The position numbers and the translations under genes were made by a program. From contig JAEMWC010000378.1 in NCBI GenBank assembly GCA_016490735.1, positions 442,501 to 506,500 of the forward strand: a stretch of DNA of 64,000 nt. Direction: 5' to 3'. The DNA comes from Pachyseris speciosa. Its lineage: Eukaryota; Cnidaria; Anthozoa; Scleractinia; Pachyseridae. The notes under the pieces are model-generated. The model saw only the letters and a program-made list of their open reading frames with translations, was not told the DNA's origin and did no database searches. This document shows, piece by piece, positions 17,855 through 41,460 of this stretch. The stretch's first letter is position 1, and each line of letters opens with the position of its first letter.

Positions 17855-20800
17855 TCACGCTCTTTCTTTTTTATCTTTCAAAATGTTAAGTATCTCCTTC
17901 AAAGTACCACTCAGATCATCCATCTTTCGATTTTGTTCTTCAAGATTGCTTTCGATGTCCATTATTTTTGCTTTTTGTTCTTGAGCGTCTTTTGTCAGCG
18001 CTTCGATTTTTTCTTGGATTCCTTTACCTCCTCTTTCATCGTCGATTGCTTTTACCTCTTCCAGTGACTCACGTGTTTGGAACGGGACCTTTTTCTGCTC
18101 AGTTTCGCCAAATATCGAGCCATTGTCGTTGCACTTGTTCTCTGAAAGCTGACGCTTGGTTTGGTCATTAACTTCAGGTGTACACATCTTTAGAAAGATA
18201 AGTTATGAAGCGAACTAATTAATCAATTTGTTTTTTTTCCTTAAGAACATTCACATACAGTTCTATCGTGTATTTTCTTACGACAATTGTTACTATGGGC
18301 TTTATATAGCCGATAACAATTTTACATGTTAGGATGCATCAATCTTTTCGGCACGGCTTCAAGCCGGAGAGCCTACTATTCTAGGCCCCTACGCTGATTT
18401 TTGGCTTAGAGTGATATCAAATGGAGCGAGAATGTCCTCGTTGGTTTTGAGCAGGTACCATCTGGAATGAGCCAATTTAGATTTCTTGATTTGGCATAAA
18501 TTCCACAAAATAGTCAGAATTTACTATAGAGAAATCCGAAAAACAATTTAACACACACACACACACACAAAACAAAACAAAATACCACGCGACTGTTTTG
18601 GGTTGCCTGTATGTAGTCTAATATGTAGTCGTAATTCGCCACTCCACAAGTTGTTTGGAGACTGGAATGAGTGAGGAATTGTGAGATTGCTCTAGTATAG
18701 ATGGGAGAATGACAGGGCAATAAAAAATCGTAGCTTTCATGTTTTCACGGCCAGGAGGGTAGCTTATTTTGACTCCGTCCAGATCGTGCTTTTATGTCTT
18801 CTGCTACTGGATTACGTCTTCTCCTCCAGTAATGCTATTGCAGTCAAACTTGGAGGGGTCGATCTATCGATACAAACCTTCGCTAGAACCCTGATCCCCT
18901 TGTGCTTCATTCCAACAAAAGGAAAAATATCTGATCTCTCAGATCCCAGTTTTATCGGAATCTTGGCAACTACTTCACTATTTAAGGAGAAGAAAATTGG
19001 TATTTCGCCATCTTCTTCTTCATTGAATCCGGCTCGACATCCAATCAAATCACCTCGATACACCACAGGGCCTGAAAGACAAGGACTCGTTCATCAATGG
19101 ACAGCAGAGAACAAAATCAGATTTTAGGAATTTATCTTTATTTTACGTAACCATATGGCAGTGATAGTCTAGCGAAAAATAGGGTGTTTCCTATTCGTGA
19201 AGTAGAAACGCGAAACAAATAAAAGCCAACCATTGTCACCAGCTTCGAAGACAGGAAAATTAAATGATGCCCAGTACAGGTTGTTAAGAGAAAATTCTCA
19301 CCTTCAACTAAATGCCTCTGATTAGAGTCATCACAATGAACAATGTTTCCATTGTACGCATGATAACCAACAGTGCGGCGTACTTCTCCAGGTGCATTGT
19401 GTTCGTCATGTCTAGCTCGCACCACACCGACAACTAGATGCCTCTTCTTCCCACCTTCTTGGACAATAACCTGGCAAACAGGAAGGATGACATAAATGCA
19501 TGCACATAAAGGTGGGTTCGATATACCAGAGCCTGCTTGTACGGAACAAAATGTTGCGACTGACAAAGGAGTGGTTCACGGTCGCCATTTAGATCGACCC
19601 GAGGTCGATCCTAGTATGCTATGACCGAGGTGTGAACGATTAGGTTTGATAATTTTAACAACGCTTTCGAAGCAGCAAGATCAGGTAGAAATACCTCAAA
19701 TTTAGGTAACTCTTTTGAGAACGGGAGTTTGTATCTTGCTCCATGGAAATCTTTGCGTGAAATGTTACAACTGCTGCAAATAGGTGGCCCAACGTACGTC
19801 AACATGTAATCTTCAATGTGAATTCCAGCACTCCTCCAGGCCTTAAACAGAAAATACAGATATGTTTGTCTATCAAGACAGATTGTCAGCAATTTTGGAG
19901 GTTCTTTGCAAACTGTGAATTAAAAAAACTTTCGCATTTAGAATTGATATGACTGTTATCAGCTAACCAGCTAACGACGTCCATGTTTTATTTATGCTCT
20001 GGTAGCTGCTTCTGAACATAATAATAGTAATAATATTTCATATTTGTATTGCGCTTTTCTCTATAAGAATAATCAAAAGCGCATTACAGTTAGCATAGTA
20101 AAACTACCGACTTATTTTAAAAGTTAAAACCTAAAATCCTAACATAATTTAAAATATTAAAAACTTTAAAACTAAGCATTAAATTTAACAAAAAGCTTTA
20201 GAAAATAAAAAAAAAGATTTGTGCGTTCAAATACAATTATATCAAAATAATGAGAACAAAAATATGAGCAAAAGCAAGCTAAGTCAGTCCAGTCCGACTA
20301 GGATGTTGAAAATGCCTTGGTCACGACATTTAGGGTCATTAATCGAGACAAAAAAATTGCATTTGAATAATGGGAAACAGTGAAATAACAATTTGTAAGG
20401 GAAGATAAGCACCAAAGAGACAAGAATAAATGCAAATATGGCGAGGATGGTGAAGGATGGAGAAGATTGAAACGGATTACAAATGACCTTTGTGAAACCT
20501 TGAGGCTAAAATTTTCAAATTCCAAAGACCGTGACCGAGCTCCTTTAAGGTGGCGTTTAAAAGCATTTATATCACTCTTGCTTCGCAGCTCTTCTGGGAG
20601 GGAGTACTTTCCTGAGACAAAAAAGTTCGAGAGCAACGTGTTTTGATTAAGGAACTAACATATATACGAACGGTTAAACCACGGAGATACGTATGATCTA
20701 ACCATTGCAGACCGTAATGTTAAGTCTTGAGTCTGCATGGACGCTGCTAGTTAAATCTAACAATGACACGTACACACACAGCCCAAAGCTACTAACCAAC

Positions 20801-23800
20801 GGGCCAAAAGGATGACACAGGTCGAGCATTTGAGCGGGATTCGGAAACACTCTTCTGACGATTTGGTTGCACATCTCCCGATTTCTGTCAGTCTCAGCTA
20901 ACATGTTGTTTATTTTATCTTCATCTGCAAGGACGAAGAAATTGTTCAGAAATTGAAACTTAATTGTTTTCCCTAGATATATTTGCTTCAGAGATAAATC
21001 TAGCTTTTCTACCGTTTGTATCACGATACAGCCACATTGATGTGGATTCTGATGTTTCGACCGCTCACTGCTGGTGTTCATCAAGCGATGTTGTGACTGG
21101 CTGCAGAGATGTTCAGTAGTGATTGTGATATTGGAATTGAGATGCCAGACACAGGGATGCCCACAATCACACAATACAACACTAGGGCTGTAACACGTAT
21201 ATAGAGGAGAGCATCATCACTATGATCATCGTCGTCGTCATCATCACAATTATTATCACCGTCACCGTCACCGTCACCATCACCATCACCATTACCAACG
21301 CCATCACCATTCCCATAACAATCACATTCACAATCACCAACACCAACACCAACACCAACACCAACACCAACGCCAACACCATCACCACCACCACCACCAT
21401 CACCATCACCATCACCATCACCATCACCATCACCATCACCATCACAATCACCATTACCGTAATCATCACCATCACCATTGCACATCATGATCCTCGTCAC
21501 CGTCACCAACACCAACACCATCACCATCTACGTCACCATTACCATCACCATCATTAACACCACCACTGTCATCACCATCACCATCACCATCACCATCATC
21601 ATCACCGTCACCACCACCGTCATCACCATCACCACCATCATCACCATCATCATCACCGTCACTACCACCAACATCACCACCACCATCATTCGGCCACCAC
21701 CACCATCATCATCATCATCGTCGCCATCGCCATTACTTTCATCATCATCATCATCACCAGCAGCAGCACCGTCATAATAATAACAATCCACACAATCATT
21801 CTATAATGATCATCATAACACCTCAGTTATAAACGTGCTGACCTGGTGCAGATGCTATAAAATAATAAAACTCAATTTGAAGAGTGTTACCTGACATAGG
21901 AAAGGCGTATCCATACTTTGCAAAATAAATATCCTTCAACCTTTCAACTATGCGATCTAGAGCTTCGAACTGTGAACAATCAGAATAAAAGAAACTCATT
22001 GTCTTTAAGTTACCTTAACAAAAGTTGTTACAAGTCAAGTCTCATTCTTGGAAAGAGCCTTAAGCTGTTCACTACAAATAAATTTTAACTGAAAGACAGT
22101 GAAGTCCTAAGGTACTTAGAAGACGCATACAAAATGAGCAAATGAAAAGTGTTTTATCAGTAGCTGACTCTTTTTTAAGGTGAACAAAACAGAAAAATAT
22201 ACCTTGATTTTGTTTACTTGCTAGCGCTAAAAACGATTTTGTGATTTGCGGGATTATCAACTGACGAAACCGGTCTCTGTGGATGATAAAATGAGGTGCG
22301 CGTGTTCAGGCCCGAAGACAGGTTTTTGCGTGGGGAGGTGCGTTTGAGCGCTGAAGGTTCGAATTGACGACCGCCTTTGGCGCGAGATAGTGGTGGGGTC
22401 CGGGGACATACTCCCCCGGGAAATGTTGAAAAGTGTTGACCTTTCAAGACTTCACAGTTTTGTGTGTTTTCAAGGACGTTACATAGAAATTCAGACAGTC
22501 AAGATCAAACGTAAAAATGTCAATACTTATGAAACATTTCTTGGTCGATATGGATTTTGAGCTTAATCCTTGAGTAGTGTGCTAAGCTCAAGCCCCCTTG
22601 AATGCTTCTGGGCAAACAAATCTACCACTTCGCATTAACGCAAGCGAAAAGAGCCTTCCTTGAGGTATGCTGGCTCTGTTGTAAGTGTGGAGTCGTCTTA
22701 GAACACTTGCGCTCCTTTCTCATTCGCAGCTGGTGGCTGGAATTGTGCAGCAAATCTCTAAGAGGACGTAAAGATTTGGGTACAAATCCCTCAAGGCTTT
22801 CACAGCGGTATTGGGTCTTTCCTGTTTTGGCTTAGAGCTGTATCCTAAATAGTCTTCCAGAAATTTAATATAGTATCGACTAACACATAGCGGGATCACA
22901 TAGCGGGCATAAATTGAAAACGGTTCAATAAGTTGATTTTCATTTCTAACTACACAATAAGCAAGTCAAGACGTAAGTACTACAGTTACGTTTACCTTTT
23001 CTTTTGTAATAACTTACTTTCTTTTCTTTTCTTTTTTTTTTCGCGTGAGTTGGGAGTGCGTACGTACCCGTTGCAACCCCCCACCCCTCCCTACGGGCCT
23101 GGTAGATGTTTTGTGCGAGTGTCATCTATTTTATTTATTGTCCAACATAAATCTTAACAAAGCTAAAATTAATTATCACCTACCCTTATCTCAATACTGG
23201 CATCGTCCGATTCGTAGTTACTGTAGAGGTTCGATGTTCTGCGCAGTGCCAAGTAAAGCTGTGATATCAGGTTCAGAGGCACAGGAATGGGATGATAGTC
23301 TCTGTATGTTCGAATGGTTACAGCCCTTTTAAATGACCACGCTCTCAAGGAGTTTTTCTGCAATAAAAGGGCAGCCTCTTCTTGGGTAAATTAAACTTTT
23401 GGTATTATCAATTGATTTATCAGTTGATACCTCGATACTGGTACTAGACAAACGCTCAATAATTGGCGAACAAGCATTAACATCTGAAATCTTTGTAACT
23501 GAGCACAGATATGCTCTACAAATCTTTGCAGCTGTGCACAGATATGCTGTACTGATTGAGGAGACTAAATGAAATCAATTCTAAATCAAATAGACTCAAA
23601 TGAAATCAAATATTGGTTTTGAGGAAGAGGAGAAAACCGTAGTGCCCGAAGAAAAACCTCTCGGAGCAGAGTTGAGAACCAACAAACTCGGCCAACATAT
23701 GACACCAAGTCCTGGAATTGAACTCGGGACACCTTGGTGGAAGGCGAGCGCTCTCACCACTGCGCCAACCCCGCTCCCCTAGAGCCACCCTGACAAGTTT

Positions 23801-24294: not shown

Positions 24295-24327
<33 letters not shown>

Positions 24328-24460
24328 AAGATTTCGTAAAGCACTTTAGAATAAAACTGAGCGATATAACGAGTGAACGACGTTTCGATGACTCCATGTT
24401 AAGTTGATAATTATGACATGGAGTCATCGAAACGTCGTTCACTCTTTATATCGCTCTTTT

Positions 24461-24494
<34 letters not shown>

Positions 24495-24647: not shown

Positions 24648-26974
24648 GGAATTACAGGTGATGATGTGTCTCTGTTTTGTTCTGTTAATGAATTTTCCAA
24701 TTTAGTTTCGATAACGTTAACAGTTACGAGGCTAAACAATATTCCCGGAAATAGGTTCTGACAGTCAAAGTCAAACGATGAACAACTGTTTCAAGTTTTC
24801 TGGAACATGACTCATTAATATATAGTTCCCATAACCATATCGATTTTCCTTGCAGCGGACTTAAGAATGTTGCAATTATTGAACAATGGACAATGGCTTG
24901 TTTAAAAGTAAAAAGAACCCTTTTCTTGTGGTTACTTATTCACCATAATTTTTAAATATTTGTTTCACGGCTCAGGGCTCTAAGATTAATCAAGAATTAA
25001 TCAATATACCTGAACTCTCTCGTATGTATGGGATAGGACGGCAATCATCATGTTAACAAGAAGAACCAGGGCGCCGATTATAAATATTGCGTACAGAATT
25101 TTTGCCAGGGTGTCCGACGCAGATTCACTTGTGTTGAATGGGTCCAGCTCTGTTATTCCTAACAGCGTCCAAAGAAGATGCCTCATGATTCGCCACCAAC
25201 TAAAAGTGCAGCAAACAGCAAACCTTTACGTTTTCATATAGATTCGTTTTGAACCAGCTACCAAGATGACCGAGTGGTTAAGGTGTTGGACTTAAGTTCC
25301 AATGGATGAATTGTCCGCGTGGTTCGAACCCCACTCCTGGTAAGTTGGTTATTTTTGATTTATTTTATTTCATTCGCCACTTCCACATCTCCCATAATAC
25401 ACTTTGTTTGCCCCCCCAAATTTTGCATAACTATTGTTTTCAATTTCTCTAAGGACTTACAATCGTCCCAAAGAATTGAAAACAATGCTTATGCAAAATT
25501 TTGGGGGGCAAACAAAGTGTATTATGGGAGATGTGGAGGTGGCGAATTTTGTTTTATTTTGTTAAAAAGTACATTTTATTATGTGGCAACCAGGAATCAA
25601 TTCAATATTATAATTACGTGCTGTGGCATTGAACAAAAACCATTTATCATTAAAATAAGCGACTGTTGAAACAGCAGAAGGCCAAAGAAGATACTGCCTC
25701 ACCAGGCAACTCCAGAGCTTTGACATTCGACGTTATTCCTAGTAGAAAAAATGAAGAAAGAGTAAGCGCTGGCCGGAAATGGTGTAACAATGGTATGTAA
25801 GTCCATCCAACCAAATTTTATCGCAGCGGTTTGATCCTTTGCCAATTTTATAACAATATCTTGGTAGAACCATGAAAAAAAAAGCTGTAAACTTTTCCTT
25901 CATGACTGATCAAACGATTCTTGCCGTGATTTTCCAACATTCTAAATGAACGAAAATTTTGATGAGAAATATTTCAAGTGTGGGTCAAACGAATCCGACA
26001 TCTGAATTTAATATCTATCGCCAACAACTGTTGCATACAAAACTTTCCAAAGATGTCGTACCACTTGCTTCAAAGGCCGTGCAAGCGCCGCCCAACAACA
26101 CCCAATATTGTTGGGTCCATCGATTTTGGTGCATTTCAATACACTGTTGGGTGTTTGTCGGCCGGTTGAAACATTCATATCCAAAAACTCGCAGCAACAC
26201 CCAGTACGGCACACCCAACACAAACGCACCCATCATGTTGGGTCCAACAATATTGAGTGTTCTTGGCCAACAATGTTGATAGCGGCTGCACGGGCCTTAA
26301 CAATCGTCACAGGAAAATGAAGGACACCGACTAAACGTATGTTTCGGTACGACGAAAAACGTTGGTCCATCGTTGGATTCGTTTGGTGGAACCGTAAGGA
26401 CAAAGCCCCTGAAAGGTTGGAGCTCAACCAATCTCTGCCTGAGATGAGAAAATAAAACATGGCACGGCATCAACTTTTCATTAGGAATACTGACCCTTTG
26501 TTAGTGTGTAACAGTCTCTCAGCACTTGAAATATACGATCCTTCAGCAACATATATTTTGGTTATGGCCATTGAGAACGCAAGAAGTGAGATAAAGAACT
26601 GGAAGAAAATCACGCCCACATCTACAATAATACTGATAAGAGCTATATGGGTGGTTCCTGTTTCTTTGTTCGTCTCCATAAGATGGCCAAAGACTCGAAG
26701 CGTCAGAATCATCGTGTTTAACCCATAAAGGTAGCCTGCGATGACCAACGCCTTGTTTCCAGTAACAGAAGTAGAGACTCCCCAAGTTACCATGCGCAGA
26801 ATGAACGTTGTTACATAAATGGTGAGCATGGTGAAGTCAAGCACATTCCAGCGGTCACTAAAAAATAAACAAGAAAGAGTCTGTTGAAGACGATGTACAT
26901 AGTGTTATACCTGATGCAATGATTCCCAGTGTTAGTTTTCGAAAATATTGGCTGTTAGTATATATCACACATGT

Positions 26975-27014
<40 letters not shown>

Positions 27015-30000
27015 TCACTTCGCCAGAGACCTGGCCGGGACACTACAACAGCTTGCGCCAATTACTGTAGGCCCGTAACTGCAAACCCTCCCCCATAACC
27101 ACATTCTAGTAGAGGTAGACCACCACACCGGGGACTACGTCCCCTACACTTTTCGAACAGTGCGTGGGTTCTTTAACGTCCCACAGAATCAGTTATGAAG
27201 AGTTGTGAGACGGGACCTACGGTTTATCGTCCTTATCCGAGAAGACTAGAAAGTCTAACCATTTGCAGATGTCATTACAAAGGCAGCACTTTCTCCTCAA
27301 TTATTTAAAGACCCTGAGTGTTGGTCCGGCCGGGGTTAGAACCCTCGACCTCCCGCACGGTAGTCCGGTGCTTTACCACTGAGCTAACCGGTCGGTCGGA
27401 TAATGTGAATAGTGCTTTCCGCTCATTCTGATTGGCTAACTCGGAGCTGAATGGCAAGTGCTTTTCACCTCTGAGCAAACGGTGAAAAAGAAAATGGCTT
27501 CCCATCCCATTTCGCTTCGGTTACCGGGGGCAATTTTTTTTATCAATAAACGAGGCGCCTGTTCCGAAAACTACAAAAATGACAACAAAGTTTGGTTTGA
27601 TTGCATTTAGTGGTAAGTTTTTTAATCTTTCCAAACTCAAATGTGTATAAAAATGAAACCTTTAACCCTTTGTAGCCTGATGGCCGATATATCGGCCATT
27701 AGACAGGCCTACCCCTTTCAAGATTGCCCGCGCTCTCAGATTTAGACCTGATTATTATGGTCTGTTTATAGTGTCAACCAGTAACTGTTTTTTTACACTG
27801 GGAATCACCTTCGTTTCCCTTTCCATATCATTATTTGTTTTCAAGCAAAACCCCCGTTTTATGCGCCCTGGAGCAAAGCTAAAAAAATACACATCTTTGC
27901 TTTCAATTCTTTAATTCAAAATCTCCTTTGGAAAACAAAATACCCTAATGAGAGCAAACCTTGATCTCATGACTAAGCATTTATCTCCAATTTTGCCTCT
28001 CACGCCTACAGCGAGTCGAGCATCAGCCATTTGATTCGAGCCACTTTACTTTTTTTCTCTTTGGCGCCCGGATTGCATTCTGGGTGATTTGGATACCACG
28101 GCGAAATGGAAGTTCCGCCATCTTCATTTTATAGATTTTTCATAAGTGTTGAGCCATCCGGACCTACTGGCAAAATATGGTACTCGTTGTGTTCTTTGCA
28201 AGTTAAATCTAACCTCAGTGTCCGTGAAAGTGGTGGATATTTGAATATCCACCACTATTCACCTCCACCTCGGTGCATAATTGTTAACTATAAGTGCGTT
28301 TACTCACCTAAAATATTTTCCTATTGCGCTGAACACCATGCGTGAGCGGAAATCCTTCATCTTGATAGGCAAGTAGGCGTTGTCGCATTCATCGTGGCCG
28401 TCCTCCTCAGATTCCCATGGATATTGATAATTTTTGTATTTCATAATACTCCAGACGAGCTTTTTGGGGTATCTGGACGATGCTGCCCTGTTGGTGTATT
28501 GTTTGAACTCTGAGAGGAAGCGTCCAATAAAGAAGATCAAGATCACCCACTCCAAAGCAGAAAAGGGGACAGTCGCTGGCGAGAGGCAGATGACAATGTG
28601 AAGGCCCAAGAGAAGAAGATAACTGATCGTGTCTCTTAGAAATATGAAGTACGGCGTGTTGAAGTAATCGTAATATTTATCTAAAACAAAACCATAACTG
28701 ATAATTGGTCATGTTACTAGGAAATCTTGTATCTAGGAACAAGAACTGCAAACGTGAAAATCAGATTTGGGTACATAACGATGACTAAACAGCCCCTAAC
28801 ATGATGTGGGCGATCTGTACGCAGCTTAATCACAGATTAGTTAAGACTTTCTAAAAGTTGAGCGTTTTAATTTACTCCCAATCATATATCTATTGCGCGT
28901 AAAACTTAAATCTTCTTTTGTGATTGTTGTCATGTAAAGTTGAAAATAGACTGTTCTTAGTCTATAAGCGTGTAGGGTTTTCGTTTGAGGTCAGTGGCCG
29001 GACGTTTTTTCAGGTCGTTTCCCATATAATTATTTCTTATTATATATATTGTTTCTGAGTGTTCTATCTCCTGGCGGGGGTGGGGAGGGGGGGCATGCCC
29101 ACCCCCACCCCCCACCCCACATCCGGTGCTTTCAGAAATATAAAATTATCCGCTACATTACAAAACCGTCGAAAGCCCTGAGCGTGTTATTTGTCGCATA
29201 TATGTTTTGACCAAAACTTTACTATTTAAATCAATTTCCAGTGTCCTTTTCAGTGAGATACGGCTGTAAGCGAAGTATATAGCAATAAGGTACAATAATT
29301 ACTGGTATTGAATTTCAATATTAGAGAATGGGCGTCAACATAATAGCCCTCAATCCCAAGTACAGTTAGAAGCAACTTATGAGTTTTTCTTTTAAATGCT
29401 CTTTTCGTGAGCTTACCCCAGTCGGGGTGTAGACAGTTCCATAATCTCGTGGTCGCTCACCAAAAACATTTAAGAATAGTTTGCCATATAAATCTTGGCG
29501 AGCGAAGATCGATTAGAGTCTCGACAATAACTTTGAAAGATAGTCTCACCGTAAAGGTCTTCTTCGTAAATCTCTGGAAGAAAAAAATGGATTGTCATGA
29601 ATAAAGCATTACAAAACAATATAATTAAAACAGACGAAAACACACCAGACAATGCCTACGTAAATCTAAATTATGAGTGTGATCATTATTACCAGACTAT
29701 CGTACGTGACCACATTACACTTTCGACTCGAACAACTGAAAACGCACCTAAAAGAAGATGCTTTGTAAAGACAATCAGCGAAGTTAGATACACGGTAGTT
29801 AACAGAAACATGTTTAATCCGAAGCATAAGAAAAAAAGCGTGGACTAACTAACACAAACGAGGGACGAATTGACATGTACAACCAAAGCAGAAAAAAAAA
29901 ATAATCGCTAGAAGTTCCATAGTAAAAAAAACTGTAAAGGTAAGTTTGTCAAAAGACGACAACGTTTGTTTGCTGATCACTGAGTTTCAAATTTAGCGGG

Positions 30001-33000
30001 ATGAGAGTAGGATACTAATAGAGTACTAAAGTGATGACATCATAAAAACTAAATTTGTGAAATTATGGGATTTGTTCGGATATTCAGAAAGAACACGATC
30101 AAAAAGACCTACTTGCCAAAAATCAGCATTTTCTTACAGTTTGAGAGCGAGATATAAGCACCGTTATGCTCTACTGACTCCATACAAATCTTTCTAAATT
30201 TTACTCAGTTCCTAACGTTATGAACTGAGTCAAATTTAGAAGGATTTGTATGGAGTCAGCAGAGCATAACGGTGCTAATATCTCAGAACCAATTTGCCTT
30301 TAAATACTAATTTTTGGCAAGTTAGCATCTTTCATCTTGCTCTTTCTGAAAATCTCAACAAATCCCATAATTTCACAAATTCTAATGCTTGTGACGTCAC
30401 ACTTTAGCACTCTATTGCTCCTCCAGTGTAAGTATGAATGATGTAATATTGGCTGATCCAACTTGGACTGTGAGAAAAAACAGTTTACTTGAGAAACAAT
30501 ACCTCTTACGAGCTTCTTTCCAAGTTTTACGTGACTTTCCAGTTCGGTGCGGATGACTTTGTTGTCAGAGGCAATACGTTCGAGGTCCTCCATCACTGGG
30601 CGATCTCTGACAGCAACAGGCACAATCTTCGCTCCAATGCGGTGGTCTTTGTAATTATAATTAGTCAGCTTCTTTCCGGCAATCCACAGTTTTCCTTTCT
30701 GAGGACCATGTGATCCAGTAGCGTCATTGGTTAACAGAATAAGAACCTGTGTGATTAAGGATAAAGGAATTCCTATTGACACCCACTATCTGCAAATCCC
30801 TGTATCAGTGGTTGATACGCACTATAAATATGTAATAGTATAAATCTACTAGCGTTTTATCACGAATGCCGCTAGGCTACTCGCTAACTATTCTGACGCA
30901 TTTGCAGATAGAGAGTAGCGGCTGTCAACAAAATGGCCGACGCTTCTTCGCGTTTTAGAAGTGTCTGCCAGGATGATTTACATGATTTACTTGCTTAGGT
31001 TTGAGCTACTAGTAGATTATTTTATGATTCTGATGTAAATCAAAACAATTATTCCCTGTTGATTTCGAAACCGGCGTGATAGCATCAGCTATTACGCGAT
31101 AGAAATCTTGAGCTCCTATTCTAATTGTTAAATATATAAAGGTCTTTAGCAGCATCAGAAACTAAGATAGACCTGTGCTATCATATAAACAAGAGGCTAC
31201 AATTAGCCTTAACTCGGGCTTGCAAAAAACAGCATTGTATCCCTAATTTAGCGCTAAACAAAAGAATAGAGAGAAGTCTGTCTTTCTTAGTTAAATGCAT
31301 CGGACGTATTGCGCTTAGCTTTTGTTGGAGTCTATTTCTTTAGACCCCTATCAATATATATCCCCCTTAAAATTGCAAACTTGCTTTACAGCTCAACCAT
31401 TGAGAACAATAATTGTAACACTTGTAAAAAAGAAGAAGAAAAAGAGAAACGAACAAAATAAAGCCCGCGATATATGCCAATAATAGATATCGAACCCGAG
31501 TTAGCTGAGTCAGAAGTAGGAACAATGACCTCTTGGCCACAGAGGTTCATCGCAATGTAATATGATAAAATAGTGTATTGATTCCAAAAAAACTAAGCAC
31601 ACTTGTTTTCGCTTCGATGGATATTTGTTTGATAAAGAAAGCGCTTATCGAACGATGTAGTTTTATTTCGCATAAACGTTAATGTAGTTTCGGTGAAATG
31701 TGAGGAGAAAAATATTCAACAGAGTGAAACTAATCAAATGAAGAATGATCCTCGCAGTTGTGAACGCAATTTATGCAATTGCGAAAACTACATCGTTCGA
31801 TAAGCGCTTTCTTTATCAAACAAATATCCATCGAAGCGAAAACAAGTGAAACTGTTTACAAATACGTCAATCCAGGGTCATTTGAAACATAAGAAAGCCG
31901 AACGTTTCAGCGGTCAGTTTCAAAACACGCAACTAAAAACTAATCGCTTATCATTCAAAAACTAATGTCCAGAAATTGAGATATTGTGGAAAAATAATAA
32001 ATAAACTACCTGTCAAAGTCTCAGGGGTGTATGATATCCCGTACTTGAGTTATTCAACAAAATGTACTACCTCTTAATGGAGTGGACACGGGGAAACACG
32101 GCAGTGTAATTAAAAACATCTGGAAGTAAGTTCGTTCATGTTAAAAGCTTTCTTCTCGCAGTTGAACGTGCAAACATTTGTATGGACACTTGTTTTAACA
32201 TATTAGTTGTTCAGACTTCAAAGACACAAGGTGAATCGACGTTTTCCGATACGTGACAACAGGCATCATTCATCGGTTCGTGTCTGTTTCTTTGCAGTGT
32301 ATATCCATAGACCCCTATAAACATATATCCCTTGAAAATTGCTTTACAGCTTGACCATCTATAACTTACAATAATTATAACACTTGTAAAAGAATATTTA
32401 AAAAAGAAGATGAAAAAAAAAAGGAAAAAGAAAAAGAAAAAAAAAGGCGTTAACAAGTGCGTCACAAGCGGTAAAGATGAGTGTTAGGCAAGGTAAAAAT
32501 AGTCTACTTATTCCAAAATGACCATTAGTAGTTAGAGCTTGCGCAGAAACGCCGGAAGTGAGCTTTGTGGATGAAACTAAGAAGAAGAACGGACGGTAAT
32601 TTTAACCTCGGGCGCGCTACGCAGCCCGAGTAATTAAAAATCTTTCTGCAACTGAAAACAAAGGCATGAAGTAAACAACAAGGACTTTGCTTACTTATTC
32701 TGATTGCAACAAGAGTTAGTTCCAGAAGAAATTACTTTGAAAAGTTGAAGGTTAGTGATTTCATAGTTTCCAGTTTCATTTGTTCAGGGTCTTCTGTTAA
32801 AAAACGTTAACCTCAAAAATTTCCGTATGGAGTGCAGCCTTCTCCATTACCTTAGTCAATCCAACCCAATCGAACTAAATTTCAATCGAACTCAATCAAT
32901 TCAATCCATGGATTGAGTTCGATTGAGTTCGGCAATAGAACGAATTCGAACTCACACAATTAAAAATGGGCAATCGAACTCACTCGAACGTTTGATTTCC

Positions 33001-36000
33001 GAACTCTTGTTGTCGTTGTTAAGCTGGTGTTTAAAAAACACTAACAAGTATTTGGAGGCTCGAGTTACTGGCTTCAGTATAACACGCCATAACGTTATTG
33101 AAGGCCTGAAAACACAAGATCCGTTCAAATCTGCTCTTTTTACTGCCGTGGAATAGTCAGTGAAAAAGGACGCGAAAATCTTGTTTTCGACGGGCCGAAT
33201 TTATTCACCAACAATCGAACTTAATCTGTTAGATTGTGTTCGATTGAGTTCGGTTGCCGAACTCGATCGAGCACAATCTAATAAATTAAGTTCGACTTAA
33301 TTAGTTCGATTTGTTCGATTGAGTTTGATTGGTTCGGACATCGAACGTTAACTCATACAAAGTTCGGTGTTCGATTTCGTTCGATTGCCGAACTCAATCG
33401 AACTCAATCCACAGATTGGGTTCGATTGAGTTCGGTTGACTATGCCGGGATCATTCTAACTTGTTTATGACAATTAAGGATTGGAAGTTGTCACGAAGAA
33501 ATTTGAACAAAACGTTTAACTTTCAACTCTACCTTTTTTGAAGTTTCTCGAGCAGAGCTACTCTTGAAGGCCTTTAACGCCTCCTCTAAATCCTCATGTA
33601 GTGCAGGGGAGCAATTTTCTGGCGGAGGTTCAAGGTTATCAAGCGTTGTAATCAAGTGACCTCTGTTGCTCTGAATGACAACGCGACATTCGTTGTCGTT
33701 TTCGAATCGCGCTTTATTTCCAAACGTAATATGTTGGAAAGCTTTTCCCTTCTTGAGGCTTATGACGCAGTAGTTGACTGACCCCATTCCAATTCTTCCT
33801 ATGATGTACTTGATGCACTCAATCATCTTCTTGAAATCCTCTGGTCCTTTGTCGCCGGTGGCATTTAGAATAAAGCAAAGATCTAGAACTGTAGAGGGGG
33901 ACACGTGGAGTTAAAAAGGTTGAAGTAAAAAAAATATTACGAGAAAGAGAGATGCATGAAACGTTGTGTAAGTTTGCTTTGCTATACTGTCACACGTAAT
34001 TACTAGGAAAAAATTCTAGTTCTTCCAACAGGAGTTGAGCCTATGTCCTTCCGATTACTTGTTGGGATGCTCTACAACTCAGCTGCAGGAGACACTTGGG
34101 AACTGGGGCGTTAACTTAGGTCCATGGAAAAAACGTCCTGCATTTTGTTGATAGGTGGAATATTCGCAGTGAGAGTAAAGTGAGATGATTAATTGATTTT
34201 AAGCCTGGAAATAAATAAAACGCGGAATTTTTCTTTCTACGCTTTCCAACACATAAGCAAAAGTACTCCTCTTAGAAAAACTCGAAAATTTTCCCCGTAA
34301 GAAATTAGAAAAGAAATTCAGTGTATGCCGGCGTGCGAAGGTATAGAAAACAAAATTACATGAGCAAACAAATATATAAAAGGGTAAATGAATGGATAAA
34401 GAAGGTAATAGCAATGTTTTGTCCCCTGGAAAATGCCCAAATTCTCACATTCACAACTTTTGAGAAAACTACCTTGAGAGATGTTATTCACTGACCTTGC
34501 ATGGTTTGAAATGACAGTCTTGATTAGAAATAAAAACAAACAGCGGAGGTAAACATGTTAAACCAACGCATTTTATATAGACTTGACGTTTCGTATGCTG
34601 GTTGTGTTTTATTTCTAATCACGGTGCGATGGCCGCTAATAACAAGAGTTTATATGATAGTCTTGTTTTAACTTTTGCCTCACGGACTTCGTCGGTACAG
34701 CCACTTTGATGTCAGTGGATCGCGACATTTCGTTTACTTATTACACGCAGGTCTTCATCAGGCGATGAGGCCCGCCAACTGACTGAGTGTCGAATTATCT
34801 GTAGCAAATCCCTTGTAAAGTGTTGCCTGTAACTAATTTAAAATTGTCCACAAACCTTTAGACTTTCTTCTCCATACGTTAATTGAATGAATGGCGTACA
34901 AGACAGGAAACACCAAAGGAAAAAGGAAAACATCCAGTACGCAGTAAAGCTTGAGCAATGTCCATTTCCAAAAGCTTGATTTCATACCAACAAATCTGCC
35001 CCTCCAAGTTTTGTCCAGCAAGTTGTAGACAACTGGGTGGGAAAGAAACTAGAAGAGAATAAAACAAACGACTGGATGAACTTAAAACATTTAATTCCTA
35101 GATGTATTTCGAAGCTTTTGATTTTAGTGGCTCTCGCATCGGGCTCATGGACGGTTGTCCATGAATTTGCGTAAAGAAGAGTCGTGTGCTTCATCAACAA
35201 GAGTTGGATATCAGGTTTGTCAACCCCGGCACTTTCTATTTCGATTCCTGTGTTGTAGCTTACAATTGGAACTACAGTGTACACTCTGGTACTGAGACTT
35301 GCTGAGAACAGTCACGCAGAATGAGGTTTTGCTTTGCACTTTGCACTGGAATTTGCTAGATTTCCTTATAGGATTTTGCAAATAAATGATGTAGATGTAG
35401 AGGTCGGATTTGTCTTTCAGTGGCCGCCAAGTGGTGACCGTCTCGCACTTTCTCAGATTCCTACTCGCGTAACCGTCAGCGAGTGAATGAAAATTAAAGG
35501 TATTTATCCTACCCAGGGCTGCGGATTAAACACATTTAGGTTTCCAGATAGCTTCAGTTAAGGACTAGATTGCTTCCAGAATATGTGGCGAGTGGTCAAT
35601 CAAAAGCAGCTGCGTCAAAGCAAGTGTTTGTTCATATTGTATCATTTGCATTATTTGGTTTCAAGTTACCTTCCTCTGTGTATAATTGATGGCGTCGTCG
35701 ATGACCAAATCCAGGGTCTCGCCAAAAGCCTCTCTTTCTTTTGTATCAGACTTGAGAGGATCTATAAGGCATGTTGTGAATTGCTCCACAGAATCTGCCA
35801 GTTTGGCCAGGTCTTTCACATCCGGTCTGTCCTGGTGAGCTTGGTACCTCAGATACCCACTCACCTACGAATAAACAGTGTGGATCATAGGAGCCTCCAT
35901 ATGCACTGTTTCCTTGAGTCAACCTTTGCGCGTATCTTTCTATTTTTAGAACGGCTTTTTCTGGAGGAGGCTCCAATTTACTGGGAAAATCTCTTTCCAG

Positions 36001-39000
36001 TAAATTCCACACACAAGCATCAGTAAAATAATTGTGGCCAAAGGTGGGCAGCGCGTTCTCCCGATCCTCCTCTTGAGTGTTCTAAACAGTGCGTGCGAAT
36101 TTAGAAACCCACAGTATTCTAAAAATAGAAAAGATACGTGCAAAGGTTGACTCAAAGGGCTTGTATGGGAGAGTGAAGCTCCTACTCATGGGCTCCTGGT
36201 GTGGATACATTGAAACGAAGAGCGCATTCCTTTCCAGCTATTCCAGAATGGGAAACTCTCGGAAAAGACGGTGTTCCCATTCTCATATCCTTATTCGGCA
36301 TATTCTCTTATCGCTAACCCTGACTACCAATAAGAAACAATTATTCACCGAAGTGGAGGTAAATATCCACCACTTTCACCGACACTGAGTTGAATAATTG
36401 TTTTAGTATATACCACACAAACTGAACAATTAGCGGACCAAAAAATTACTTTATGTGTGACAATATACCGACAAGCGGTCGAAAATTTTAAAATCTCGCG
36501 CGCCGGCTGCTCGGAGGTGAACAGTACTTGCTAATCACCTCCGAGTTAACCAATCAGAGCGCAATCAGAGCGTATATACCAACAAAGGATAGTCCCAAAA
36601 AAGATTAGAATTAAGCTGCTTCTGAACTTAACATACCACATTCCTTGTTACATAACCCCAATTTACTCGAAAAACCACTGACTAAAATAAACAGTATGAC
36701 GGCCGAGACATGTCGGAGAGACCCCAGTTTTCTGGGATAAGAATTACTAAGCAAGACCAAAATGTGTATAATGGGTCAGACAAAGGACTGCATTGTTGAT
36801 GAGTGTCCCCTAAATAGACACAACCAGCTCCATTGAAGCGGCAAAAGAACCAGGGTTCTTGGGTTCAAAACTACCAGAGGAAAAGGTTGGCTTTTCCTTC
36901 CCGGGGAACGAGATTTTTCGATTCTAGACTTAATCAGCGGTCTACAGCTACAGCGACGTTCCTTAATTTCACTCTCAGGAAAACAAGACGAAGCTAGTGT
37001 TAGAAGGCCTACATTTAGTTTGTTTTGAACTTCTGTATGCAGATTCTAGCTGTTTTAATTCAGTTTAATGCACTAAAACAAATAGCTGATATATATTTAT
37101 TTCCAAGAAAACATGGGGTTGTCGAAAGTCTTAGCGGAGAACCGCGAATCATTGAAAAAGGGTCACCTTGTAGCTATATACGGTACCTGGCTTAAGGCCG
37201 TGTATCTTATTTTCAGGTTGTTTCGCTTTTTCTTAATTATTATGTGTTGAACTGTTTAATTTAACTTCATTGTTTTTAACTTGTAAGTACATGATAACTT
37301 ATCTTTTAGCTTACTGATGTAGTAATCTCATACATAGCTTATAATATAGTAATGTTGCATTAGCAATGTACTGATCCTTTAGCTTATAATGTTTAGTGTT
37401 TATTTATTACTAATATACTTGCCTCGATTAAAAAAGCTGATGCTATACACTCAACCAATCACTAAAGGCGATAATGATCAGCGTGGTTTAATTGCTATAG
37501 AATTTAGAGCTTATAGGAGCTGCGAGGCTACCGTAAATTTGCGCTGTTTTTCCTTCCAGGCATTACATGTGCAGATCTCCAAGGGCGACATAAACTGTAT
37601 CCCTGAACTAGTCCTCCTCTCATTGCGCGTTGGGGTTTTGGACCAAGATGCACATGTGTTAAAATTTGGATGATTTGTTTGTTATTATTTGGGTGGAGTT
37701 CCTGGAAGCTAGCTGGAGTAGCACTCCTACCATGAACAAAGCTCTAAGGGTCTGTTCACATGGAGGTGGGGGACCCCAGGCAGGTGAGGTCCCCCACCTA
37801 CCCGTGGTCCAAAAAAGCTAGCCTTCCCATGCAACCCCGGGGCACTGGGGTGAGGTTTAAAAGGATTACACTCACCCCGAGAATGCTATGTGACAATTCT
37901 TTCTTGCTTACCTCAAATGCCTTGCGAAGAGTGTTGGTACTGCACGCCCCTAGAGATTTTGGTGTGATGGCTTCAGCTATTTTATCAAAATCATCAGATG
38001 CTAGCTTTCTGTCCAGCCCCTTCTCGAATTCTATTAAATAATTAGCAAAAAATATCATCAGTACATGGTGGTTATGGTGTGAACTGACTTAAGGAGGAAA
38101 AACACTTCTGAGACCGCACACACTAATAGGACGCGGAGACTGGCCAATCTTTGGTCTGAATCTCTAAAACAATTTATAAACAGGTTGCCTAATGAAAAAA
38201 CGAGTGTCAAAAAGAAGACAATTGGCAGCTTTTCATTTTCACAATGTTTTGTAATATCTTGTGATTCTAATACTTGTTAGAATAAATCTGCTAGAGTTCT
38301 ATCACGGATTCCGCTCTCTGATAGGCTACGCTACTCGCTATCTATTCTGTGGTAGATAGCGAGTAGCGGTTGTCAACAAAATGGCGGCCGCTTCATCGCG
38401 TTTTCGAAGTGTCTGCGAGGAGGATTTAGATAATTTACTTGTTTAGTTTTGAACGACTACTGGATTTATACTAAAACAATTAGATTATTCGCTCTCGATT
38501 TCTATGCGTGATGGCTGATTCGGGCTGCGCCCTCATCAGCTATCACGCGATAGAAATCTCCAGGTCATAATCTAATTGTTAAATAGTATTGTGTTATTGA
38601 TTTAACAATTGTGCAAAATTAATATGTTCTGCCCACAGTACTGTAGTTTAGCTGGTTTATTGTAACAGTAATGGGGTGTACGCCGTCTTTTGCGGTTTTA
38701 GACCTGCAATGCAAATAAAGTATGTTTATACTTATTTCTATAACAAAAACACGACATTCAAGCACACTGATCTGACCTGATACATCGGACTCCGCTTCCA
38801 GTTGCACCAGTCTCATTTCGTCGTGGCAGTTTCGTGAAGCAAGGCCAATGATGGAGACGTCAATACCGCACAACCAGGCTGGCTCAGTCTGAAACGTTAC
38901 AACGTTCAGATCTTAAAAATGGAATTCTGCCTTGCCAAAAACATTTTATAATTATCCAAATTGTAGACTCCGTAAGCTCGAGAACGCTATGTTTGACCGA

Positions 39001-41034
39001 AAGAATAGTATGCAAATACGATGCAAATAACTGAAGCAAGACATGCTAAGCTCAACGCCAAGCCAACACTGATTGAAGTTGTTTATTACAAGACTGAACG
39101 ATGGTATAGTACTCATGGTATATCTTAGCTCTGTTACAAAATGATCCTCTCGCAATGACATTGGACAAACAGGCAATTGTTCAAAAATTGCAACGGTGGA
39201 CAATCTCTTGAGGCTAAAGTTCATTAACCGCTTGCCTTATACAGCGAGTCTCAAAGAATAACGCTAATTGCACTGATGCGACCAGTAGTTAAAAGCATGA
39301 GTAAACTCGTAGTTTATGTGTAAACAGCATTACTCTGATTACTGATGGTATTCTGTTAGACTAACGCTTGCAGCTGGGATGTCAAACAAGTAATCAGGAA
39401 TGTAACGAACTTGTTTTTCCACTGAAGAGGGGCCAACCCCGAAACGTTTGGAAACATTAGTATGAAAATATGGCACTTTTCGTCCACTTCAAGTGAACAC
39501 CTACATACTATTTAGTAATTAAGTAATCCCTGTAGCACAATTGGCACTGTATCGCGGTCTAGCACTGACTGAACCCGTCATGCAGAATCCATCCTTCTAT
39601 CCATATGACTTTACAAACGTCTGCAACAATGGCTTTAGCAAATAAACTGACTTTGAATGTTCTTAAAACAGAGTACATGGTAGTCGGGTCAAGACAAAGG
39701 ATGGCAACTTTCACCCAAGGACTCGATCTTGCTATAAGTGGGATCATACTTACAGGAAGAGTAAACAGTACTAAATGTTTGGGTGTTGAAATAGATGAAT
39801 TCTTGACATGAGAATCTCACATTTCAACAGTTTGCAAAAGAGGTCTGTTCTGGTATAGGCATCACAAGAAAGATTAAGCCTTTTGTCCCTTCTTCCAATT
39901 TGACTAGCGTCTGTCAGTCAATAGTCGAGCCGTATTTTGATTACTTAAGCTTAGGATGACACCAGTGACCACCTCATGAATAAACTTCAGGTATTGCAAA
40001 ATCGTGCCGAACGATTTATTACGGGGACGCACTACCCGACGGCCACATATCAGTTGTTGAACAAACTCGGTTGGTCTAATCTTAGACAGTGGAGAAACAA
40101 ACAAAAGATTCTAACGATGTTCAAAATTATGAATGATATGACTCCAGTCTGTCTAAAGGAAATATTTTCGAGAAACATTGGGTCCTCTGTAAAAAATCTG
40201 AGAACATCAAGATGGGACTTAGCCTTACCAGAACCAAGGACTGATTTTTATCGGAATAGCTTTGCCTACACTGGGGCAAAGTTATGGAATACTGAACAAT
40301 ATGAAGTGTATGGATTGAATGCCATAACAGGTTTCAAGAGTAAGTTAGAATATCTTAGTCTCGCTATCAACCATAACTTAAGTTTGTATATAATTTCGAA
40401 ATTTTTAATTGTCTATAAGGTATCTTAGGAATTACATTGTAAAGTAGGATTTTACATAATTTTTAGTGTACTTTAATTAGTTCACGGCTTTTGTAGAAAA
40501 CAAAAATACAGTGTTTGTAAATTTTTGAAAAAAATTACCGTAATTTAATAAAGTTTTCTATTCTATTCGACGCATTCATCGGCTCTTTCTATCCGTCCTC
40601 CGTCCGTCCAGTCACCCTCCATTTTGTTCCAGTCTTTTGTTTATTCATTTCATTCATGGAGCAACTTCCATCCTCTCAGCTACGCATGCACAAGCCAAAC
40701 ACTATATAGTCAATGCTTACTCGTGCGTGGTTCGCATGCCAAAATCTCCGTAACCACTGAGGAAAGATTCGCTTGTGTGACGTTTGTATTCTGATTATGT
40801 TTTATTCTCCTGCTCGGTGTCAGGTAACAAAACGGAAATTATAACTGGCTTCAAGTTCCTCTCGCATCAGTTAAGTCTCAGAACTTCCTACTACCTTAGT
40901 TACATCTTCTAACCAGTCATCAGCAGTAATGATCATTATATAGCAGATGAATTTGCAGTTGTGGACCATCCTATGTTTACCAAAGGTATTCGCCATCTCT
41001 CTCCTATCGCAGCGCTCCTGCACGCTATTGAAGG
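17855..41034 (-). CDS. TRPC-like cation channel with inserted vWA domain and C-terminal SPRY domain
   Basis: A predicted plasma-membrane cation channel of 1164 residues. Coding exons in order: 40895-41034 (ATG at 40996), 38777-38888, 37912-38030, 35670-35864, 34856-35048, 33533-33888, 30503-30746, 29550-29573, 28308-28680, 26495-26857, 25010-25199, 23184-23357, 21891-21969, 20797-20924, 19695-19841, 19302-19470, 18878-19071, 17855-18187. All have GT-AG borders and matching phases. Residues 70-176 resemble the TRPC linker helices; 177-240 match the TRPC pre-S1 region (HPVVYNLLDKTW, then hydrophobic 213-232). A vWA domain spans about 241-410. S1 is about 461-481, S2 490-508, S3 576-598, S4 609-632, S5 648-672, pore near 704-713 (WTLLGITELD), S6 725-749 (LLVNMMIAVLS), then a TRP box at Trp764 (WSFKRA). 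SPRY is about 895-1054 and an acidic/basic coiled coil about 1090-1160. There are no ankyrin repeats: the N-terminus is short. Gating and ligand are unknown; the acidic pore residues suit cation permeation. The domain calls are from motif reading, and the fusion is supported by phase and order, not by transcripts. Confidence 0.86.
18545..18575. repeat. CA dinucleotide run
   Basis: A short (CA)n followed by AAAACA repeats in the intron between the SPRY exon and the coiled-coil exon. Confidence 0.8.
18878..19841 (-). other. SPRY domain of the channel (three exons)
   Basis: Exons 19695-19841, 19302-19470 and 18878-19071. SPRY hallmarks: VVGVVRA, RRTVGYH, GDLIGCRAGFN, IPIFFSLNSE and FPFVGM in the canonical order. 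SPRY domains bind short peptide motifs. The third exon has a GTTTGT donor; without splicing the frame runs to a stop at 18812, giving an alternative end without coiled coil. Confidence 0.85.
21215..21780. repeat. CAC/CAT hexanucleotide-rich satellite
   Basis: About 560 bp of ACCATC and ACCAAC units with gradual drift, in a channel-gene intron. It produces open frames on both strands (poly Thr-Ile, poly Asp-Gly, poly Val-Met) that are not genes. Confidence 0.95.
22000..23160. other. Channel-gene intron, no exon seen
   Basis: Contains a block at about 22385-22425 (TCCGGGGACATACTCCCCCG) that recurs inverted near 41930-41965, so part of it is a dispersed repeat. The remainder is unassigned. Confidence 0.5.
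23600..23783 (-). mobile_element. tRNA-derived SINE, family A copy 1
   Basis: On the minus strand it starts with a tRNA-like head: GTTGGCGCAGTGGTGAGAGC (box A) and GTTCAATTCC (box B-like). A conserved body ending in the TCTCC..GG..CTACGGTTTTC block follows. Shares head and body with 42466-42640 and the fragment near 7540. Confidence 0.75.
24295..24650. repeat. ATT and CTAT microsatellites with a perfect palindrome
   Basis: (ATT)n at about 24299-24325, 24464-24493 and 24595-24648; (CTAT)n at about 24549-24590. Between them 24359-24456 is a near-perfect inverted repeat with arms of about 45 bp (GACTCCATGT/ACATGGAGTC centre) and a small loop. The block before the first ATT run looks like a LINE 3' end. 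Confidence 0.85.
25260..25342 (+). tRNA. tRNA-Leu(UAA) or close pseudogene
   Basis: 83 nt with a class II fold. Acceptor ACCAAGA/TCCTGGT has one A-C mismatch, the D-arm is GACCGAGTGGTTAAGG, the anticodon stem-loop TTGGA-CTTAAGT-TCCAA gives anticodon UAA, and there is a long variable arm. The T-arm reads GTGG-TTCGAAC-CCCAC, one base short of the usual GTGGG stem. No intron. It sits inside a channel-gene intron on the opposite strand. The small defects leave open a pseudogene or the head of a tRNA-derived SINE. Confidence 0.6.
25372..25547. mobile_element. Foldback element (palindrome)
   Basis: 176 bp with arms of about 75 bp that are nearly perfect inverse copies (ATTCGCCACTTCCACATCTC against its inverse), separated by a short loop. 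Non-coding; in a channel-gene intron 30 bp after the tRNA. Confidence 0.85.
26073..26299. mobile_element. MITE rich in CCCAACA/TGTTGGG motifs
   Basis: Inverted ends AAGGCCGTGCAAGCGCC and its diverged inverse. The interior holds at least eight TGTTGGG or CCCAACA heptamers in both orientations. Confidence 0.7.
26970..27398 (-). mobile_element. tRNA-derived SINE, family B with ATTT tail
   Basis: The minus-strand head reads GGTTAGCTCAGTGGTAAAGC and GAGGGTTCTAACCCC (boxes A and B). A body of about 300 bp and a (TAAA)n tail, seen as (ATTT)n at 26970-27014, follow. This is typical full-length SINE structure. Confidence 0.8.
27400..28300. repeat. Dispersed repeat fragments in intron
   Basis: 27420-27470 shares TCTGATTGGCTAACTCGGAG with 36530-36560 (inverted). 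28220-28265 is a palindrome around GGATATTTGAATATCC, close to the GTAAATATCCACCACTTTCA block at 36358-36380. Probably parts of one element family split by other insertions. Confidence 0.45.
29550..29573 (-). other. 24-nt microexon joining vWA to S1
   Basis: An acceptor TTTCTTCCAG precedes it and a strong donor GTGAGA follows. It adds eight residues (EIYEEDLY context), keeps phase 1 on both sides and can be skipped without a frameshift. The read-through frame also stays open for a while, so retention is hard to exclude without RNA. Confidence 0.75.
30017..30416. mobile_element. 400-bp foldback element
   Basis: Arms of roughly 190 bp each are inverse copies (GAGTACTAAAGTG against CACTTTAGCACTC at the ends; TGAACTGAGTCAAATTTAGA near the centre). 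It ends about 85 bp from the splice donor of the second vWA exon. Confidence 0.8.
30838..31131 (+). repeat. Hairpin-rich dispersed repeat, copy 2
   Basis: Same family as 11072-11376 and 38279-38582; the most diverged of the three. It shares GGCTGTCAACAAAATGGCCG and CTATTACGCGATAGAAATC blocks. Confidence 0.7.
31340..31445 (+). repeat. Short dispersed repeat, copy 1
   Basis: Shares the block ATATATCCC...TTGCTTTACAG.TC.ACCAT followed by AACAATAATTGTAACACTTGTAAAA with 32306-32460 and 51903-52020. All three end in a purine-rich or A-rich tail, suggesting a retroposed fragment. Confidence 0.6.
31600..31848. mobile_element. MITE with 65-bp perfect inverted ends
   Basis: CACTTGTTTTCGCTTCGATG at one end and its exact inverse at the other, continuing through CGAACGATGTAGTTTT. 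The middle 120 bp is non-coding. Confidence 0.85.
32306..32460 (+). repeat. Short dispersed repeat, copy 2
   Basis: Second copy of the repeat at 31340, ending in an AAGAAAAAG-rich tail. Confidence 0.6.
32850..33445. repeat. TCGATTGAGTTCG motif cluster in both orientations
   Basis: The 13-mer TCGATTGAGTTCG, its inverse and near variants occur about ten times, clustered at both ends of a 600-bp segment, so the whole folds back on itself. Between them lies plain sequence. It is in the intron just before the vWA exons. Confidence 0.8.
35876..36215. mobile_element. MITE with long inverted ends, family C copy 1
   Basis: About 80-bp inverted arms sharing GAGTCAACCTTTGC and TCTATTTTTAGAA. The ends carry CCAGGAGCCCATGAGTAGGA. 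A relative is at 59336-59526. It begins about 10 bp upstream of the acceptor of exon 35670-35864. Confidence 0.7.
36600..37740. other. Channel-gene intron, no exon seen
   Basis: A/T-rich; no supported exon. 37748-37880 resembles the end of a MITE (GGTCTGTTCACATGGAGG). Confidence 0.5.
38279..38582 (+). repeat. Hairpin-rich dispersed repeat, copy 3
   Basis: The least decayed copy of the family. It contains ACTCGCTATCTATTCTGTGG with AGATAGCGAGT (hairpin 1) and GATTTCTATGCGTGATGGCT with its inverse (hairpin 2). Confidence 0.75.
39600..40558 (+). pseudogene. LINE reverse transcriptase C-terminal fragment
   Basis: Open stretches 39605-39811 (thumb region, CLGVEIDEFL) and 39976-40428 (LQNRAERFITG, GAKLWNT) match the C-terminal part of LINE reverse transcriptases, in different frames with stops between. 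It ends near an AATAAAG at 40545. Decayed and 5' truncated; it lies in intron 1 of the channel gene. Confidence 0.75.
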
Positions 41035-41293
41035 CTGTGTAAGAAAACTAGCTTTCTATTTTGTGGTGTTTGTTTTGCGTTCTCGATTTCCTACGAGGAG
41101 TTCAGGCTGTTTCAAGACATAATTAAGCGAGATATTATCGCAACTTGTAGTCGAAATCCTTCAGCTTGTAATCGCGTTAAGCATGAGAGTGCTTTAACGA
41201 TTTGAGCCTAAAATGCTCATAAACGACCCCTTCTGAGGCACGGCACACTGATGACTACATCGCGGATTGCCTTTACAAAAAGACGGTACTTAC

Positions 41294-41460
41294 ATTCTAT
41301 AGATTTGACTGAGTAGAAGTCTCTGTGGCACTGAATCGCCGCGGTTTGGTTCGTCTCACTCTGTATCAATCACTTCGGAACAATCGTGCGACTAGTCGTG
41401 GCCGGCATAAATGTGAATATATGTAGTTCCCGTTGCGTGAACGGAAACGATATTGCTCAT
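41294..41460 (-). promoter_or_regulatory. Probable 5' UTR exon of the channel gene
   Basis: Ends in ATAGAAT followed by donor GTAAGTACC (minus strand). The next exon starts after TTTTCTTACACAG at 41035 and holds the ATG 39 nt further on. A short upstream ATG frame ends before the donor. The upstream limit and promoter are not defined. Confidence 0.5.

What the first reader, a model, noticed from the sequence alone, without database searches (positions are those of the whole stretch)
17855..41460. A TRP-type channel with a vWA domain before S1 and a SPRY domain after the TRP box
Eighteen exons on one strand join without a single phase conflict into a protein with TRPC-like linker, pre-S1 elbow, vWA, S1-S6, TRP box, SPRY and coiled coil. 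vWA and SPRY are both protein-binding modules, and I know of no described TRP channel with either in these positions or without ankyrin repeats at this N-terminus. It could be a channel gated or scaffolded by protein ligands. Seen: exon phases and motifs. Known: TRPC core order and the SPRY and vWA motifs. Inferred: one transcript and novelty.
Basis: partly seen in the sequence, partly recalled or inferred. Interest (0 to 1): 0.92.

Follow-up and report, generated by a model that had tools for sequence, protein, structure and literature searches.

The report
Coral TRP channel with vWA insert
A coral gene encodes a TRPC-like ion channel with a SPRY domain near its tail and a von Willebrand A domain slotted in just before the first membrane helix; the same layout recurs in other stony corals and looks like an undescribed channel family built by exon shuffling.

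Summary
On the minus strand, 17 GT-AG exons (38030-17855) join in frame into 1,104 residues: TRPC-type linker, pre-S1 elbow, vWA, S1-S6, TRP helix, SPRY, helical tail. Nothing upstream of 38030 is supported, and the start exon (about 6 codons) was not found. Three searches gave 72 relatives; the 53 that bear a species name are all stony corals. Close relatives keep the order, two of them as about 1,100-codon frames on contigs of 3.5-3.8 kb that look like cDNA. SPRY matches 56 of 73 rows, vWA 35 of 73; vWA clusters in the tree. vWA-less rows have 22-57 residues between elbow and S1 instead of 173-233, and a phase-1 junction there in the 3 loci read; vWA is a two-exon 1-0-1 cassette in the 3 loci read. 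Best explanation: a TRPC-derived cation channel whose vWA, with a degenerate metal site, is a built-in cytosolic partner or assembly module. Architecture is shown; conduction, topology and function are inferred. Eight literature searches listed no description.

The parts
37912..38030 (-). coding exon 1 found (N-terminal helices; preceded by an unfound start exon)
   Evidence: orthologues P0001/P0002
35670..35864 (-). exon 2, TRPC-type linker helices
   Evidence: family profile matches TRPC4 199-349, i-E 8e-7
34856..35048 (-). exon 3, FLSHP motif and pre-S1 elbow; ends in phase 1
33533..33888 (-). exon 4, vWA first part (phase 1 in, 0 out)
   Evidence: Pfam VWA
30503..30746 (-). exon 5, vWA second part (phase 0 in, 1 out)
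29550..29573 (-). exon 6, 24-nt micro-exon, link to S1
28308..28680 (-). exon 7, S1-S2 and S2-S3 loop, with Glu/Gln of the S2 Ca2+ site (site recalled)
26495..26857 (-). exon 8, S3-S5, with Asn/Asp of the S3 Ca2+ site (site recalled)
25703..25738 (-). exon 9, 36 nt, pore turret with the first conserved cysteine
   Evidence: from orthologue alignment
25010..25199 (-). exon 10, pore helix, filter and S6
23184..23357 (-). exon 11, TRP helix
   Evidence: Trp in 63 of 63
21891..21969 (-). exon 12, post-TRP helix
20797..20924 (-). exon 13, post-TRP helix
19695..19841 (-). exon 14, SPRY part 1 (phase 0 in)
19302..19470 (-). exon 15, SPRY part 2
18878..19071 (-). exon 16, SPRY part 3 (phase 0 out)
   Evidence: long helix in the model of P0002

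Best explanation
The gene encodes one subunit of a (presumably tetrameric) TRPC-derived cation channel of stony corals. Shown by sequence: the channel core, the vWA between elbow and S1, the SPRY domain and a C-terminal segment predicted as one long helix in the orthologue. Shown by comparison: SPRY is widespread in the family, while vWA is present in about half of the sampled members and sits as a 1-1 phase exon cassette where vWA-less sister genes have a phase-1 intron; the simplest history is one gain with a few losses. Inferred: elbow and N-terminus are cytosolic as in TRPC, so four vWA domains hang at the inner membrane face beside the TRP helices. The vWA lacks the first metal-site aspartate, so it probably works as a metal-independent protein-binding or assembly module, comparable to Copine-6, whose vWA alone raises TRPM3 current, but here covalently attached. 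SPRY would be a second partner-binding module below the TRP helix. The kept S2-S3 Glu/Gln/Asn/Asp set suggests that cytosolic Ca2+ still primes opening, with partner binding setting surface level or gating.
Against: No transcript of this species, no recording, no topology experiment. The AlphaFold model has mean pLDDT 66.7 and pTM 0.45. The start exon is missing. Pfam itself finds VWA in 17 and SPRY in 15 of 30 members; the higher counts come from family profiles trained on the same rows. A single vWA gain is parsimonious, not shown: starred branches force at least 3 changes and 0% of 200 bootstrap trees need only one; some losses may be annotation faults (for example P0008). The pore glycine aligns to E or D in 10 of 63 rows, so some members may differ in the filter. 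The third metal-site Asp is lost in the window but kept in a part of the rows. The copine parallel concerns another channel family, acts in trans, and was read by its authors as a surface-abundance effect.
Confidence: 0.6

Rival explanations
1. The vWA and SPRY are receptor modules: the family is a variable set of intracellular sensors that open a cation channel when a specific (for example microbial, symbiont or damage-related) protein binds.
For: Among 26 rows with all three domains, vWA is less identical than the channel core in 324 of 325 pairs, SPRY in 296 of 325. The S3-S5 exon has 30 matching places in this genome, the window included. PMC9145168 reports a TRPC6-like family expanded in Montipora and suggests a role in sensing environmental change (passages).
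Against: Faster divergence of an accessory domain is common and no selection test was run. No ligand is known. The weakest genomic matches may be other TRPs, and several places carry stops.
Confidence: 0.2
2. The protein is a channel-derived scaffold or regulatory subunit that no longer conducts alone and works in heteromers with canonical TRPC.
For: Ankyrin repeats and TRP_2 are absent. TRPC heteromers are known (8wpl and 9khi entries). TRP_2 loci exist elsewhere in the same genome.
Against: Filter-region acidic residues, turret cysteines and TRP helix are largely conserved, unusual for a dead pore.
Confidence: 0.15
3. The combination is a gene-model artefact: a nested or neighbouring vWA gene and a SPRY gene read together with a TRP gene.
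Against: Same order in separately annotated corals and in cDNA-like contigs; per-exon identity across every junction; same cassette at two further loci.
Confidence: 0.03

Closest known systems
TRPC4/TRPC5 channels
   Different: No ankyrin repeats, no TRP_2 match, vWA between elbow and S1, SPRY after the TRP helix
TRPM channels (TRPM2 group)
   Same: TRP superfamily core, S1 and TRP helix resemblance; TRPM2 chanzyme is the best single-sequence hit, E 1.4e-13, with my draft core
   Different: No melastatin, NUDT9H or kinase domain listed; weaker than TRPC by profile. The 2026 TRPM survey PMC13143021 has no mention of SPRY or vWA in its main text (word search)
Copine-6 with TRPM3
   Same: A cytosolic vWA domain that binds a TRP channel and raises its current (PMC12317139, passages)
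   Different: Separate protein acting in trans, with C2 domains; the coral vWA is fused into the channel
Ryanodine receptors
   Same: Cation channels with SPRY domains (PMC3194816, passages)
   Different: Giant ER channels; SPRY lies in the large N-terminal cytosolic part (recalled), not after a TRP helix
Montipora TRPC6-like expanded family HOG0002487 (PMC9145168)
   Same: Coral lineage expansion of TRPC-annotated genes; possibly the same family
   Different: The paper's main text has no SPRY or vWA mention (word search); identity with this family not tested

Membership tests
TRPC | TRPC-type transmembrane core and TRP helix | tested here: met
   Profile best to TRPC4/5; TRP helix Trp in 63 of 63 rows
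TRPC | Linker helical domain and pre-S1 elbow | tested here: met
   Profile 50-195 matches TRPC4 199-349, i-E 8e-7
TRPC | N-terminal ankyrin repeats | tested here: not met
   No Ank family among the 9 families found at E 0.01 in 30 members or in the window protein at E 10
TRPC | TRP_2 domain (PF08344) | tested here: not met
   Not listed; the 8 TRP_2 matches of the genome lie on other contigs
TRPC | Paired cysteines ahead of the pore helix | tested here: met
   C in 52 and 53 of 63 rows, most others gaps; also in TRPC4 in the alignment; the disulphide itself not tested
TRPM | Melastatin (SLOG) domain; NUDT9H or kinase in some | tested here: not met
   No such family listed
vWA domain | Pfam VWA above curated cut-off and vWA fold | tested here: met
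vWA with metal-dependent adhesion site | First Asp of the DxSxS motif (motif recalled) | tested here: not met
   Asp in 0 of 30 readable rows of 33; Asn in the window
SPRY domain | Pfam SPRY above cut-off and SPRY fold | tested here: met
TRP channels | Tetrameric cation conduction | not testable with these tools
   Needs electrophysiology

The most novel reading that the evidence does not exclude
Stony corals carry a large repertoire of channel-receptors: SPRY-tailed TRPC-type channels, about half of the sampled ones with a vWA captured by exon shuffling into the elbow-S1 loop as a built-in auxiliary subunit, diversified as cytosolic protein sensors that turn recognition of a protein (self, symbiont or microbe) directly into cation entry.
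Probability: 0.18. Interest if true: 0.9.

Novelty: new variant of a known kind. Interest (0 to 1): 0.72.

Why it matters
In mammals vWA domains modulate channels in trans (Copine-6 on TRPM3, and CLCA1 on TMEM16A as told in PMC12317139). A channel family with vWA fused into the gating neighbourhood, next to vWA-less sister genes in the same genome, is a natural before/after experiment on how an auxiliary module changes a TRP channel. It also points to an expanded, poorly annotated channel family in reef corals, where sensing and Ca2+ entry bear on symbiosis, calcification and stress.

Tried and rejected
Artefact of joined genes: rejected, see rivals. Extra exon near 36,100: an open frame I first took as coding (part); orthologues skip it. 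Start exon: pattern searches upstream to 64000 gave nothing convincing; an in-frame ATG 28 nt before exon 1 is a possible alternative start. TRPM membership: considered because the first single-sequence PDB hit was TRPM2 chanzyme; the profile puts TRPC first. Extracellular vWA: not excluded by experiment, disfavoured because it would need an odd number of crossings before S1. Donor of the vWA: apart from the window and the family loci on C8 and C48, the window vWA matched only contig C22 in its own genome (2 of 7 matches), where many vWA modules stand in tandem. Of 14 C22 modules that I picked, 11 have a candidate phase-1 acceptor and 6 a phase-1 donor; 3 show donors of other phases only and 5 none. 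A lead; no tree was made. Other taxa: three protein searches gave no named non-scleractinian family member; hits outside the family were a lamprey ankyrin TRP and a collagen VI. Each search scored only about 8,000 candidates, and 19 of 72 members bear no species name, so absence elsewhere is not shown. Species: size and contig number of G000 match what I recall for Pachyseris speciosa; one search did not confirm it. Also looked at without use: passages of PMC11526382.

Rows dropped: P0018 and P0032; in the tree, rows with a core match under about 280 residues, leaving 63 of 73; rows without full vWA and SPRY in the pairwise identities, leaving 26; rows in which the crude elbow motif was not found, leaving 49 of 63. 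Family domain profiles were trained on the same rows, so their E-values are circular. One structure job was run; the second was not used.
Full report
WHAT IS THERE. The window lies in a genome of 984 Mb (G000:C378:442501-506500). On its minus strand I read 17 exons from 38030 to 17855, every intron GT-AG, all phases compatible, no internal stop. The product, lacking a start exon of about 6 codons, has 1,104 residues. By family profile vWA spans 171-369, the S1-to-TRP-helix core 379-729 and SPRY 825-994. Pfam gives Ion_trans E 1e-10 and VWA E 1.5e-6 on the whole protein, and SPRY E 5.6e-6 when that segment is scanned alone but not on the whole protein.

A 36-nt exon at 25738-25703 restores the turret segment seen in the close orthologues.

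RELATIVES. One single-sequence and two profile searches of about 5.8 billion proteins found 17, 25 and 62 family members, 72 different ones in all (two other hits, a lamprey ankyrin TRP and a collagen VI, are not family). Of the 72, 53 bear a species name and all of these are stony corals: Acropora, Montipora, Porites, Pocillopora, Stylophora, Oculina, Desmophyllum, Orbicella; 19 come from sources marked lgn or jgi without a species. Each search scored only about 8,000 candidates, so absence elsewhere is not proven. The closest, P0001 and P0002 (Acropora millepora LOC114958471), cover the whole of my draft at 66 and 64% identity. Identity holds across every exon junction. Members P0001 and P0004 lie on contigs of 3,540 and 3,763 nt although their frames need about 3.3 kb and the window gene spreads over 20 kb; these look like cDNA (inference; the tool does not say what source 'lgn' is).

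HOW THE vWA GOT THERE. Of 73 rows (72 proteins and the window, fragments included), 35 match the family vWA profile and 56 the SPRY profile; the profiles were trained on these rows. In a 63-row tree the vWA label (33 rows) needs 4 changes against a mean of 21 in shuffles; well-supported branches force at least 3, and none of 200 bootstrap trees gets by with one. 24 of the 30 vWA-less rows still match SPRY. The simplest history is SPRY first, one vWA gain, a few losses, some of which may be annotation faults. Where a crude motif scan could place the elbow (49 of 63 rows), its distance to S1 is 173-233 residues in 28 rows with vWA and 22-57 in 21 without. In the window, contig C48 and contig C206 the vWA occupies two exons with phases 1-0-1. 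In three vWA-less paralogues (L036, L039, L042) the elbow exon ends in phase 1 and the S1 exon begins in phase 1, read by eye; L039 has two further small phase-1 exons between, and further small exons in the other two were not excluded. Of 12 own-genome loci that I chose and tested, 3 had a vWA match and 9 none within the stretch held; both elbow and S1 were seen in 4 of these 9. This is the pattern of a 1-1 module inserted into a phase-1 intron. The SPRY exons are a 0-0 set. In the own genome the window vWA had 7 matches: two are its own, three lie at family loci on C8 and C48, two on contig C22, which holds many vWA modules in tandem, often in one exon. Of 14 picked there, 11 have a candidate phase-1 acceptor and 6 a phase-1 donor. 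That is a lead to the donor, not a proof.

HOW IT PROBABLY WORKS. Inferred: with N-terminus and elbow cytosolic as in TRPC, the vWA sits at the inner face of the membrane beside S1 and the TRP helix. The first metal-site Asp is absent in all 30 readable rows (Asn in the window); the later Asp of the site is Asn in the window but kept in part of the rows (motif recalled). Metal-dependent adhesion is therefore unlikely. Copine-6 gives a working parallel: its vWA binds TRPM3 and, expressed alone, raises the current from 34 to 63 pA/pF at -80 mV, which the authors ascribe to surface abundance (PMC12317139, passages). I therefore favour a built-in assembly, surface-retention or partner-binding role for vWA, with SPRY as a second binding module and Ca2+ as co-activator. 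A receptor role is the main rival: among 26 rows, vWA is less identical than the core in 324 of 325 pairs and SPRY in 296 of 325, and the S3-S5 exon has 30 matching places in the genome, the window included; the weakest may be other TRPs and several carry stops.

NOVELTY. Eight full-text searches with TRP or TRPC terms and SPRY, vWA, von Willebrand, coral or exon-shuffling terms listed no description of such a channel (shown were 20 of 63 papers in 15, 20 of 35 in 51 and 10 of 19 in 98, titles and starts of abstracts). The TRPM survey PMC13143021 (abstract and a word search of its main text), the coral TRPV paper PMC12503276 and the Montipora paper PMC9145168 (word searches) do not mention SPRY or vWA. 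The library is open-access only. I rate it a new variant of a known kind: known modules, a known channel core, a combination and insertion site not described in what I could search.

Noticed in passing
G000 contig C22:636500-656300 and 672000-691800 (L045-L048): Many vWA modules in tandem, often one exon each; by eye the first metal-site position is mostly Ser or Thr-like rather than Asp. Only non-TRP matches to the window vWA in its genome.
   Followed up: partly
window 4013-4303, minus: Catalase N-terminal exon (Pfam E 8.6e-39).
   Followed up: no
window 13712-14092, minus: Open frame of 127 codons that resembled a PLAT/lipoxygenase region by eye; no Pfam hit at E 0.01.
   Followed up: partly
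window 15209-16228, plus: Single-exon rhodopsin-class GPCR (7tm_1 E 3.4e-22), next to the channel gene's 3' end on the opposite strand.
   Followed up: no
window 50496-51062, plus: Open frame with a death effector domain (Pfam DED E 2.4e-21).
   Followed up: no
window 46520-46909, plus: DDE_Tnp_4 transposase fragment (E 1.1e-19).
   Followed up: no
P0046 (Oculina patagonica): A vWA-less family member whose precomputed Pfam list also carries accessions that I recall as EF-hand families, possibly another fusion or a merged gene model.
   Followed up: no
P0028, P0031 (Porites): Members with channel core and a C-terminal tail but no SPRY match; the SPRY exons of the window are a 0-0 symmetric set that could be skipped or lost without a frame shift.
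   Followed up: partly
G000, whole genome: 152 VWA matches with only 150 of 562 candidates scored: a vWA-rich genome.
   Followed up: no
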